NCBI GenBank assembly: GCA_902774275.1
Contig: CACYHN010000012.1
Coordinates: 1-41,124, forward strand
Reading direction: 5' to 3'
DNA from: an uncultured Bacteroidales bacterium
GTDB taxonomy: Bacteria > Bacteroidota > Bacteroidia > Bacteroidales > Bacteroidaceae
Length of the DNA: 41,124 bases
In this document: positions 39,335-40,933 of the stretch, piece after piece
Layout of the letters: each line of letters opens with the position of its first letter
Position numbering within the stretch: the first letter of the stretch is position 1
The notes under the pieces: model-generated
Seen by the model: only the letters and a program-made list of their open reading frames with translations
What the model was told of the DNA's origin: nothing
Database searches by the model: none
Translations under genes and position numbers: made by a program

Positions 39335-39384
39335 CGCGACCGGAGGTTGCCTCCGTTTGCGGAGCAAACTAGTACTTATGTTTG

Positions 39385-39403
39385 AAATCCAAATAAAATT
39401 GGA
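39385..39403. repeat. Left subterminal inverted repeat of the IS
   Basis: 19-bp perfect inverted partner of 40892-40910. Followed immediately by a GAGCCC/GGGCTC hairpin (39405-39420). Confidence 0.85.
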
Positions 39404-39462
39404 AGAGCCCTATCGGGCTCAAGGTGGTTTGTGTTTTTCATGGTATTAAGTTGAAAAAAAGA

Positions 39463-39528
39463 AAGCTACTAAGTTTTTGGTTATTTTTATATCACCACAA
39501 TATTCAAAAACCTAAAACAAAGTAGCTT
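39463..39528 (+). promoter_or_regulatory. Hairpin occluding the transposase start
   Basis: AAGCTACT (39463-39470) pairs with AGTAGCTT (39521-39528), which touches the transposase ATG. TTTTTG (39474-39479) and CAAAAA (39505-39510) extend the stem. Such a hairpin can hide the ribosome entry site on transcripts that read in from outside. Confidence 0.55.
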
Positions 39529-40599
39529 ATGACAGGACAAAGAAAAGAATTAAATTTTGAAGGTCAAAACATTTACATCGGATTGGATGTACATAAGAAA
39601 AGTTGGTCCGTAACAATTCTGTCCGATGTGTTGGTGTTGAAAAAATACAGCCAGGATCCCTCACCGGATGTGTTATATGCCCATCTCGTTAGGAACTATC
39701 CTGGAGCGACATACTACTCGGTATATGAGGCAGGTTTCTGTGGATTCTGGATTCACTATCGTCTGACGGAACTGGGGATACATAACATTGTTGTAAATCC
39801 GGCCGATGTACCGACAACGGCTGGAGAAAAGATAAGGAAAACAGATGCGATTGACAGCAACAAGCTGGCACGCAGTCTGAGATCCGGTGATCTTAAAGCA
39901 ATATACGTTCCTGACAACGTATCGCTTGAAATACGTTCTTTGATAAGACTGAAAGACTCTATGACAAAAGACCAGATTCGACAAAAGAATCGTATCAGGT
40001 CATTTTTATTCCTCCACGGTATTGAAGAGCCTACCTTCTCAACATCTCATTGGAGCAGTAGGTTTATCACATGGCTCAAAGAAGTTAGTATGAAGACTAC
40101 CTGTGGAAGAGAGGCGTTGGATATAATGATCAACCAGCTCGAGACACTTAGGAAACAGCGTCTGGAACTTTTGGCTAGACTTCGAACTCTGTACAAATCA
40201 GACCGATTTGCTGAACCGTTAAGATTGATAATGAGTGTTCCTGGCATCGGTCAACTTACAGGTATGGCATTAATAGCTGAAATTGATGATATAAAGCGTT
40301 TTAAGAGTGCCGATAACCTTGCCTCATATATCGGCATGATCCCCATGTGTCATGCCAGTGGTGATCACGAAGGTATAGGCGACATCACGATCAGGAAGCA
40401 TAGTAAATTAAGGCCTCTACTAATCGAAGCTGCTTGGACTGCTGCCAGACAGGATCCAGCAATGCAGTTTGCCTATGCTGCATACTGTAAACGAATGAAA
40501 CCACAAATGGCTATAGTAAAAGTAGCGCGTAAATTGGTCAACCGAATATATTATGTAATGAAGCATGAACAGGAATATGTCAACAGCATTGTTGCATAA
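39529..40599 (+). CDS. IS110-family DEDD transposase/recombinase
   Basis: 356 aa, full length and uninterrupted. The N-terminal RuvC-like DEDD domain shows Asp20 in YIGLDVHKKSWSV, Glu67 in SVYEAGFCG, and Asp106 and Asp109 in KTDAIDSNKLARSL. A coiled-coil linker follows (about 195-225). The C-terminal Tnp_20 domain has MSVPGIGQLTGMALIAEI and CHASGDHEGIGDI, where Ser277 is the likely nucleophile. IS110 recombinases use a bridge RNA from the element's own end to pair donor and target DNA. Downstream non-coding space to the right repeat is about 290 bp. Confidence 0.95.
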   Translation: MTGQRKELNFEGQNIYIGLDVHKKSWSVTILSDVLVLKKYSQDPSPDVLYAHLVRNYPGATYYSVYEAGFCGFWIHYRLTELGIHNIVVNPADVPTTAGEKIRKTDAIDSNKLARSLRSGDLKAIYVPDNVSLEIRSLIRLKDSMTKDQIRQKNRIRSFLFLHGIEEPTFSTSHWSSRFITWLKEVSMKTTCGREALDIMINQLETLRKQRLELLARLRTLYKSDRFAEPLRLIMSVPGIGQLTGMALIAEIDDIKRFKSADNLASYIGMIPMCHASGDHEGIGDITIRKHSKLRPLLIEAAWTAARQDPAMQFAYAAYCKRMKPQMAIVKVARKLVNRIYYVMKHEQEYVNSIVA

Positions 40600-40605
40600 C
40601 AAAAT

Positions 40606-40767
40606 ATCCTTTCGGATAAACAGACTTTTCATGGGAAGAATCCTACCTTTTTTTTGCGGCTTTGGAGTCCGCTGTAACTAGATTGCCCTTCCCACCTTTG
40701 TAAACTAATCAAAATACTTGCGGCGCCATCAGGATGTCCGCTATGGAAAGTCTGTTTACCGAAGGAT
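40606..40767 (+). ncRNA. Candidate bridge RNA/seekRNA of the IS110-family element
   Basis: A 162-nt region starting 6 bp after the transposase stop folds on paper into a closed structure. The outer stem is AAACAGACTTT (40618-40628) with AAAGTCTGTTT (40747-40757), extended by ATCCTTTCGG with CCGAAGGAT at the base (one bulge) and CAT/ATG on top. Inside are two lobes: GGGAAG/CTTCCC (40633-40638 with 40688-40693) enclosing a GCGG/CCGC hairpin (40656-40671), and a second GCGG/CCGC hairpin (40720-40741). Two internal-loop lobes are the bridge-RNA design. Not computed, drawn by eye. Confidence 0.6.
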
Positions 40768-40782
40768 TTATTACTACAACAA

Positions 40783-40808
40783 AAACGACCTTCTGACGAA
40801 GGCCGTTT
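40783..40808 (+). terminator. Hairpin after the candidate bridge RNA
   Basis: AAACG-CCTTC and GAAGG-CGTTT form a stem with one A/C mismatch and a TGAC loop. The T run is short (three), so it may be a weak terminator or a 3' stabilising stem of the RNA. Confidence 0.45.
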
Positions 40809-40891
40809 AAGGAGTATGTTTTAATCCGAATTTGATGTAAAAGATATTTATCTGTGTATCAATAGAATAGAAAAATAATCAAAAATTTCAA

Positions 40892-40910
40892 TCCAATTTT
40901 ATTTGGATTT
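40892..40910. repeat. Right subterminal inverted repeat of the IS
   Basis: Perfect reverse complement of 39385-39403. It ends 3 bp before the proposed CT core. Confidence 0.85.
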
Positions 40911-40933
40911 TAACTGGAAAAAAAAAGGTTCCG

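What the first reader, a model, noticed from the sequence alone, without database searches (positions are those of the whole stretch)
40606..40767. Two-lobed structured RNA downstream of an IS110-family transposase: likely bridge RNA/seekRNA
Seen: long outer stem (11 perfect bp plus extensions) enclosing two internal loops, each capped by a GCGG/CCGC hairpin, between transposase stop and right inverted repeat. Known: IS110-family recombinases use an RNA with donor- and target-binding loops; IS1111-like members carry it downstream of the gene. Inference: this is that RNA for a Bacteroidales element.
Basis: partly seen in the sequence, partly recalled or inferred. Interest (0 to 1): 0.75.

Follow-up and report, generated by a model that had tools for sequence, protein, structure and literature searches.

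The report
Guide RNA of a jumping gene
A mobile DNA element in a gut Bacteroidales genome carries, just after its transposase gene, a two-lobed RNA whose loops match both the place where the element sits and the element's own ends, so it is very probably the guide that tells the element where to insert: a well supported new example of a recently discovered, already known kind.

Summary
At 40606-40767, between the stop of an IS110-family DEDD transposase (39529-40599) and the right inverted repeat, lies a strong two-lobed fold (z -4.8). (1) In 24 relatives 35 of 43 pairs show changes on both sides; 87% of cells pair, against 38-47% in slid controls. (2) The 5' strand of lobe 1 is an 11-nt perfect complement of the right flank, its 3' strand repeats 6 nt of the left flank. 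Over 27 element types per side, guides fit their own flanks better than exchanged ones (0 of 20,000 permutations). (3) Lobe 2 matches the element's own ends (donor guide). (4) An empty site in a relative gives the boundaries. A copy identical but for one base sits elsewhere in another genome and diverges right after the guide match. (5) The joined ends resemble a Bacteroides promoter (17 of 26 junctions), with its TTTG half missing at all 32 integrated left junctions. Layout is IS1111-like; transposase phylogeny leaves the group open. New member of a known kind. Side discovery: many relatives carry another conserved structured module, shared with IS256-type elements, absent from the window.

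The parts
39373..40919 (+). the whole insertion element, core dinucleotide not counted (boundaries +/- 2 nt)
   Evidence: empty site in L065 (same genus): GCAAACTAAAAAAAGGTACC against window AACTAG|TACTTATG...TGGAA|AA|AAAAAGGT; L006 copy identical over 39367-40929 but for one base and diverging at 40930
39367..39372 (+). left target flank AACTAG (last two bases = core AG at this junction)
   Evidence: repeated by RNA 40676-40681
40919..40929 (+). right junction AAAAAAAAGGT: last A of the right end, core AA, then target AAAAAGGT
   Evidence: perfect complement of RNA 40645-40655, inverted repeat I13; L065 has seven A's, as this model predicts
39382..39403 (+). left sub-terminal inverted repeat
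   Evidence: I3 (22 nt, 95%)
40892..40913 (+). right sub-terminal inverted repeat
   Evidence: I3
39377..39384 (+). left-end TATGTTTG, fits the Bacteroidetes -7 promoter box TAnnTTTG
   Evidence: consensus from PMC7366714 (passages and section 8 seen)
40902..40905 (+). right-end TTTG, would be the -33 box when the ends are joined in the circle (spacer 19)
39529..40599 (+). DEDD transposase/recombinase, 356 aa; D20, E67, D106, D109 and the GMIPMCHASG motif
   Evidence: Pfam PF01548 + PF02371; NCBIfam NF033542 210.9 bits, cut-off 140; PDB ISCro4 and IS621; residues, motif
40606..40767 (+). bridge RNA / seekRNA, full two-lobed structure
40617..40632 (+). outer stem, 5' arm
   Evidence: I6
40743..40758 (+). 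outer stem, 3' arm
   Evidence: I6
40645..40655 (+). target guide 1 (ACCUUUUUUUU), pairs with the top strand at the right junction
40656..40672 (+). hairpin capping lobe 1 (GCGG..CCGC)
   Evidence: helix 5
40676..40681 (+). target guide 2 (AACUAG), same as the left flank, so pairs with its bottom strand
   Evidence: weak on its own (1283 of 20000 shuffled flanks do as well), strong over the family
40712..40718 (+). donor guide 1 (AAAUACU), pairs with left end AGTACTT at 39371-39377 but for one A.C mismatch
   Evidence: family test
40720..40741 (+). hairpin capping lobe 2
   Evidence: helix 6
40744..40750 (+). donor guide 2 (UGGAAAG), same as right end TGGAAA at 40915-40920 but for its last base
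   Evidence: family test
40783..40808 (+). hairpin after the RNA, terminator-like position; function not tested
   Evidence: fold

Best explanation
The feature is the bridge RNA (seekRNA) of an autonomous IS110-superfamily insertion element of a Bacteroidales bacterium. Shown here: the RNA fold is conserved through compensatory changes; [quoted passage not shown] lobe 2 carries two guides for the element's own left and right ends; guides and DNA change together between elements. Inferred from the known mechanism: the element excises as a circle; joining its ends makes a promoter of the Bacteroides type that transcribes transposase and RNA; the RNA binds the recombinase and holds target (lobe 1) and circle junction (lobe 2) together; the enzyme exchanges strands across a shared dinucleotide (AG), inserting the element in one orientation. 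In this host the target is AACT-AA-AAAAAGG at the foot of a repeated palindrome.
For: Fold z -4.8. Model R1, built from the window and seven relatives, finds the RNA beside the transposase stop (-9 to +32 nt) in 17 relatives of only 43-51% protein identity. Covariation: 35 of 43 pairs with double changes; cells paired 87.4% against 38.5-47.4% for six slid controls. Guides against flanks: right 8.84 own against 5.23 permuted (z 14), left 6.75 against 4.71 (z 9.9), 0 of 20,000 each; donor guides z 5.7 and 5.4; eight mismatched controls z -1.2 to 1.9. In genome G740 five copies share one RNA: the five right flanks hold 6-10 nt of match to the guide, three of four readable left flanks 7-10 nt and the fourth (L094) a partial match; sister genome G749 (3 copies, another right guide) has other right flanks that fit its guide. 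Sites without the element: L065 for the window, L110 for L094. D20, D106, D109 in 28 of 28 proteins, E67 in 27 of 28.
Against: No transcript or protein-RNA binding is shown. The window's left guide match (6 nt) alone is within reach of chance. One core base differs: guide and left junction have AG, the empty-site relative has AA. Some copies do not fit: L087's right flank (rank 26 of 27), L023's right flank (rank 11), L036's left flank (rank 19). The own flank ranks first in only 15 of 27 (right) and 7 of 27 (left) types. The left-side test falls to z 2.5 (171 of 20,000) when the near-constant AGT is cut off, and two of the eight controls reach z 1.9. The donor tests are partly carried by the split into two subfamilies.
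Confidence: 0.95

Rival explanations
1. The structure is a transcription terminator or a 3' UTR fold that stabilises the transposase mRNA, without any guide function.
For: It lies directly after the stop codon and is very stable; a further hairpin follows it.
Against: A terminator would not need loop letters that change with the insertion site; guide tests 0 of 20,000. A 160-nt covarying two-lobed fold is far larger than a usual terminator.
Confidence: 0.02
2. The matches between RNA and flanks are by-products of the palindromic or A/T-rich DNA around the element, not base pairing.
For: The window's own match is largely a run of A/T; several flanks are A/T-rich; two of eight wrong pairings reach z 1.9.
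Against: The same guides do not match other elements' flanks, the opposite flank or the opposite sense to any like degree (eight controls, z -1.2 to 1.9, against z 14 and 9.9). Less A/T-rich guides match as well, e.g. L013, L018, L047, L016. Random 20-mers of the window reach the window's score in 15 of 20,000 draws.
Confidence: 0.02
3. The copy in the window is a fossil: the RNA once guided insertion but this element no longer moves.
For: One core base of the target differs from the guide; the search of the draft genome shows one copy of this type.
Against: Transposase frame and ends intact; a copy identical but for one base sits at another site in another genome of the genus, so movement or transfer is recent.
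Confidence: 0.1

Closest known systems
IS1111-group elements with seekRNA (ISEc11, ISPa11, ISKpn4; Siddiquee et al. 2024, PMC11187229; abstract and the sections Introduction, features, co-purified RNA, target, many targets and Discussion seen)
   Same: DEDD transposase with PF02371, sub-terminal inverted repeats, structured RNA downstream of the gene, top-strand complement lying 5' of the bottom-strand match, insertion at a repeated palindrome (as ISPa11 in REP sequences).
   Different: Repeats are longer (22 nt against usually 11-13) and the outer extensions about 9 and 6 nt rather than 7 and 3; transposase 356 aa against 330-350; in my 28-protein tree it lies apart from the IS1111-like attC-site element (support 88/77); junction promoter of Bacteroides type.
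IS621 bridge RNA system (Durrant et al. 2024, PMC11208160; section 12 and passages seen)
   Same: Two programmable loops, one for target and one for donor, each with a left and a right guide, overlapping at a core dinucleotide; promoter formed by the joined ends; circle intermediate.
   Different: In IS621 the RNA lies upstream of the gene, the core is CT, and the transposase is only distantly related (E 6.9e-7).
ISSso6 / ISEc45 type IS110 elements
   Same: Nearest named transposases in the tree, about 28-31% identity; ISSso6 also has long complementary arms right after its gene (read by eye).
   Different: From E. coli plasmids; no match to model R1 downstream of either gene.

Membership tests
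IS110 superfamily (DEDD transposase) | N-terminal DEDD/RuvC domain and C-terminal PF02371 domain | tested here: met
   Pfam; NCBIfam NF033542 above cut-off; D20, E67, D106, D109 conserved
Bridge RNA / seekRNA | Structured RNA in a non-coding end with compensatory changes | tested here: met
   35 of 43 pairs with double changes in 24 relatives; alignment fitted to the model, slid controls far lower
Bridge RNA / seekRNA | Loop segments complementary to both strands of the target | tested here: met
   z 14 and 9.9 over 27 element types per side, 0 of 20,000 permutations
Bridge RNA / seekRNA | Second loop complementary to the donor (element ends) | tested here: met
   z 5.7 and 5.4; in part explained by two subfamilies
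Bridge RNA / seekRNA | RNA is made and binds the recombinase | not testable with these tools
   needs small-RNA sequencing and pull-down
IS1111 group | Sub-terminal inverted repeats of sufficient length | tested here: met
   22 nt, 95%
IS1111 group | Long non-coding region with the RNA downstream of the gene | tested here: met
   RNA at 40606-40767; in 26 relatives' copies measured the model hit starts -9 to +32 nt from the stop
IS1111 group | Terminal extensions of 7 bp left and 3 bp right | tested here: not met
   about 9 and 6 nt by the empty site and the conserved ends; the count depends on where the repeat is taken to begin
IS1111 group | Transposase clusters with IS1111 members | tested here: inconclusive
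   only one IS1111-like element, identified by its place between qacEdelta1 and aadA (recalled criterion), was available; the window clade joins ISSso6/ISEc45 instead, support 88/77
Rfam families | Match at gathering score | tested here: not met
   only a tRNA in the window; none in ten relatives

The most novel reading that the evidence does not exclude
These Bacteroidales elements form a branch of bridge-RNA elements of their own, neither classical IS1111 nor classical IS110: RNA downstream, long inverted repeats, AG core, donor ends that double as the two halves of a sigma-ABfr promoter (so guide and transposase are made only from the excised circle), and in many members an exchangeable structured 3' module shared with unrelated IS256-type elements.
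Probability: 0.45. Interest if true: 0.55.

Novelty: new member of a known kind. Interest (0 to 1): 0.38.

Why it matters
RNA-guided recombinases are being developed for inserting DNA at chosen sites. This clade gives 28 natural guide types from Bacteroidales, 26 of them with both flanks readable, with natural reprogramming visible between sister genomes (G740 against G749) and sites seen without the element. It shows which letters act as guides and which belong to the ends, and suggests that expression in this phylum runs from a Bacteroides-type junction promoter.

Tried and rejected
Internal inverted repeat as the element end: a second pair (39471-39492 / 40867-40888, I5), with a similar pair in several relatives, first looked like the end, because DNA similarity to the second element of the genome starts there. 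Flank comparison of relatives and the empty site put the ends outside it.

Rfam: no family for the RNA. The loose list has ten matches, none overlapping 40606-40767; one is a sub-threshold FopS match at 39431-39490 (30.2 bits, gathering 56).

Viral contigs: no relative. Plasmids: only distant relatives, all under 60% identity. Class-wide search with model R1: only the own genome of 395 at E 1e-4, with the tool's stricter filters; family of G605: 6 of 101. So close kin are patchy.

Start-codon idea: 9 of 36 copies have an ATG opening 60 or more codons within 27 nt of the right end, against 501 of 4585 random positions. This rests mostly on one related group and was not pursued.

Empty site for L006: no clean one. 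The own genome has none. In L077 and L079 the matching place lacks the element and has a palindrome followed by AACTAAAAAAAGG, but 18 nt between this and the shared flank are missing in L006. For the L091 site only one relative matched, far from the junction. Of eleven relatives fetched for the window's own site (L062-L072) only L065 matched on both sides up to the junction.

Misfits of the guide reading are listed under evidence against.

Copies left out before the counts: one search covered 39 sources; L022 (cut by the contig end) and L055 (no model hit) were dropped, leaving 37 copies in 28 guide types, 27 usable per side and 26 on both. Near duplicates or repeats of the same site (L009, L011, L045, L082-L084, L095, L096) and truncated or masked loci (L019, L037, L044, L053, L088, and fragments such as L025-L034, L042) were never entered; L039, L041, L051, L056, L057, L058 were also left out (outlying or without a clear end), although L039, L041 and L057 match model R1 at 21-27 bits and L056 at 15. 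Structure count A3 (24 rows) leaves out window, L008 and L012, because a reverse-strand match would have entered the alignment, L043 (reverse match at E 0.73), and duplicates.

Full report
What is there. The + strand of the window end carries an insertion element: inverted repeats at 39382-39403 and 40892-40913 (22 nt, 95%), a 356-aa DEDD transposase at 39529-40599 (Pfam PF01548 and PF02371; NCBIfam 'IS110 family RNA-guided transposase', 210.9 bits against a cut-off of 140; distant sequence matches to the solved ISCro4 and IS621 transposases), and after it the feature of the finding. D20, D106 and D109 are the same in 28 of 28 aligned transposases and E67 in 27 of 28.

The fold. 40606-40767 folds at -54.0 kcal/mol, z -4.77 against 200 shuffles, with an outer stem of 16 nt at 94% complementarity and two lobes each capped by a GCGG/CCGC hairpin. 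The window and seven relatives (transposase identity 55-67%) align over the region; RNAalifold finds 44 pairs, 13 with a change on both sides. A covariance model of these eight finds the RNA beside the transposase stop (start -9 to +32 nt from it) in 17 relatives of only 43-51% identity. On 24 sequences aligned to that model (window not among them) 35 of 43 pairs have double changes, 209 cells against 25-43 for six slid structures, and 87.4% of cells pair against 38.5-47.4%. That alignment leans to the model, and four of its rows were also in the model.

The target guides. In the window the 5' strand of lobe 1, ACCUUUUUUUU (40645-40655), is a perfect 11-nt complement of the right junction (40919-40929), and the 3' strand, AACUAG (40676-40681), repeats the left flank 39367-39372. 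A shuffled right flank does as well in 49 of 20,000 cases, a shuffled left flank in 1,283 of 20,000, so the left match alone proves nothing. Across the family the picture is clear: 37 copies in 28 guide types were read, and for 27 types per side each guide was scored against its own and all other flanks. Right side 8.84 against 5.23 (sd 0.25), left side 6.75 against 4.71 (sd 0.21), 0 of 20,000 permutations each. The own flank ranks first in 15 of 27 (right) and 7 of 27 (left), and in the top three in 23 and 17 of 27. Eight wrong pairings (other lobe, other flank, other sense, element ends) give z -1.2 to 1.9, two of them 1.9. With the near-constant AGT cut off, the left side falls to z 2.5 (171 of 20,000). 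Misfits: right flanks of L087 and L023, left flank of L036.

Natural copies. Genome G740 holds five copies with one identical RNA region: the five right flanks hold 6-10 nt of match to the guide; of the four readable left flanks three match over 7-10 nt and L094 in part. G749 holds three copies whose right guide differs from that of G740, and whose right flanks fit it over 7-10 nt.

The donor guides. Lobe 2 has AAAUACU, pairing with the left end AGTACTT but for one mismatch, and UGGAAAG, the same as the right end TGGAAA and one base more. Across 27 types: z 5.7 (left end) and 5.4 (right end), 0 of 20,000. Two subfamilies with different ends (TGGAAA, ATAGAAG) carry part of this signal, but single cases also fit, such as L013/L014 with AUAGGAGG in the RNA and ATAGGAGG at the end of L014 (ATAGGGGG in L013).

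Empty sites and boundaries. In a genome of the same genus (L065) the same place between ahcY and the rpsO-side terminator reads GCAAACTAAAAAAAGGTACC without the element (ahcY, rpsO from my own reading of the sequence). The seven A's there equal core AA plus five, which leaves TGGAA as the right end. L006, from another genome of the genus (its contig equals one of G703), is identical over 39367-40929 but for one base (40837) and diverges from 40930 on, exactly after the guide match. Its left side is cut by the contig end. The matching place in L077 and L079 lacks the element and has a palindrome with AACTAAAAAAAGG, but 18 nt beyond it are missing in L006, so this is no clean empty site. For copy L094 the relative L110 (76% identical beyond the junction) has a single G where both junctions of L094 have G, which agrees with an AG core. 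The 13-letter target AACTAAAAAAAGG occurs 24 times in the 2.1-Mb draft genome, its reversed control 0 times; in the ten loci looked at it stands at the foot of differing palindromes of the form GTT...AAC. So the element targets a repeated palindrome of its host, as ISPa11 does with REP sequences (PMC1525189, abstract seen).

Expression. In 17 of 26 distinct joined ends a TTTG stands 19 or 20 nt before TAnnTTTG, and in 19 of 26 if the last base may be A; the joining takes two bases of the right flank as core. This is the sigma-ABfr arrangement (boxes centred at -7 and -33; PMC7366714, introduction passage and section 8 seen). TTTG at that spacing was found in 0 of 32 integrated left junctions, and before 12 of 247 TAnnTTTG sites of all loci then held. 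This is inference from sequence; for IS621 the junction promoter is sigma-70-like (PMC11208160, passages seen).

Class. Layout (long inverted repeats, downstream RNA, order of the target guides) is IS1111-like; the outer extensions are longer than 7 and 3. In a 28-protein tree the Bacteroidales clade joins a cyanobacterial element and ISSso6/ISEc45 rather than the attC-site P. aeruginosa element (fork support 88/77, long branches present). I therefore call it an IS110-superfamily bridge-RNA element with IS1111-like layout and leave the group open.

Novelty. Bridge RNAs were predicted in 93% of ISfinder IS1111 elements (PMC11208160, section 12 seen), so this is a new member of a known kind. The searches 'bridge RNA + IS110 + IS1111 + Bacteroid' (0 papers), 'bridge RNA + IS1111' (4 papers), 'IS110 + Bacteroid + insertion sequence + transposase' (41 papers, 15 listed) and a wider one on bridge recombinases (60 papers, 25 listed), of which I saw titles and abstract beginnings, showed no description of such RNAs in Bacteroidales; most subscription papers and all preprints of bioRxiv are outside the library.

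Side discovery. Between RNA and right end many relatives (13 distinct sequences) carry a further conserved module of about 155 nt, absent from the window (no match). Its two helices covary: 12 of 19 pairs with double changes in 11 sequences; in 30 sequences 13 of 19, 90.7% of cells paired against 25.6-46.1% slid, though 53 of 500 shuffles reach 13 pairs. No Rfam family matched in the ten loci scanned, at least five of which hold it. It occurs in 54 of 393 Bacteroidales genomes at E 0.001, while the transposase was found in 15 of 393 at E 1e-40. Of 28 loci examined, four have the IS110-type gene before it, and in six it begins at or over the stop of a quite different gene (a seventh, L141, has it 20 nt before); the two frames tested match 'IS256 family transposase, variant Zn-binding type'. 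What it does is unknown.

Check. Mended: the junction count (17, not 19, with the strict box), the L006 empty site (not clean), the identity range of the far relatives, and the wording on model members.

Noticed in passing
L010:3742-3898, L013:3755-3916, L036:2785-2942, L121:1501-1648 and others: A conserved, covarying structured module of about 155 nt downstream of the bridge RNA in many relatives and directly after IS256-Zn-type transposases; 54 of 393 Bacteroidales genomes; no Rfam match in the loci scanned; function unknown.
   Followed up: partly
L047, L054, L060 (right ends): A different conserved hairpin-rich stretch (GCCAAG...GACGGCGAAG...GGGCATTGAGCCCGG...GTATTGCCCGAA and alike) occupies the same place in another group of relatives.
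   Followed up: no
genome G000, 24 places; window 39335-39371 nearby: AACTAAAAAAAGG is repeated 24 times in the draft genome, in the ten loci looked at each time at the foot of differing palindromes GTT..AAC; a REP-like repeat family.
   Followed up: partly
L038, L040, L085, L086, L090, L092, L020: In these copies the right target guide contains the complement of ATG (ATTATGA and alike), and the element sits a few bases before an ATG that opens a long frame.
   Followed up: partly
window 39463-39528 and 40867-40888: A second, internal inverted repeat between left and right end, plus a hairpin just before the transposase start; the repeat sequence varies between elements but pairing seems kept.
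   Followed up: no
G000:C2:60871-61935 (L043): The same genome holds a second, related element (61% identical transposase) with its own RNA and different guides that fit its own flanks (rank 2 of 27 on both sides).
   Followed up: partly
window 39431-39490: Sub-threshold match to the Bacteroidetes sRNA family FopS (RF04319, 30.2 bits, gathering 56) in the element's left end.
   Followed up: no
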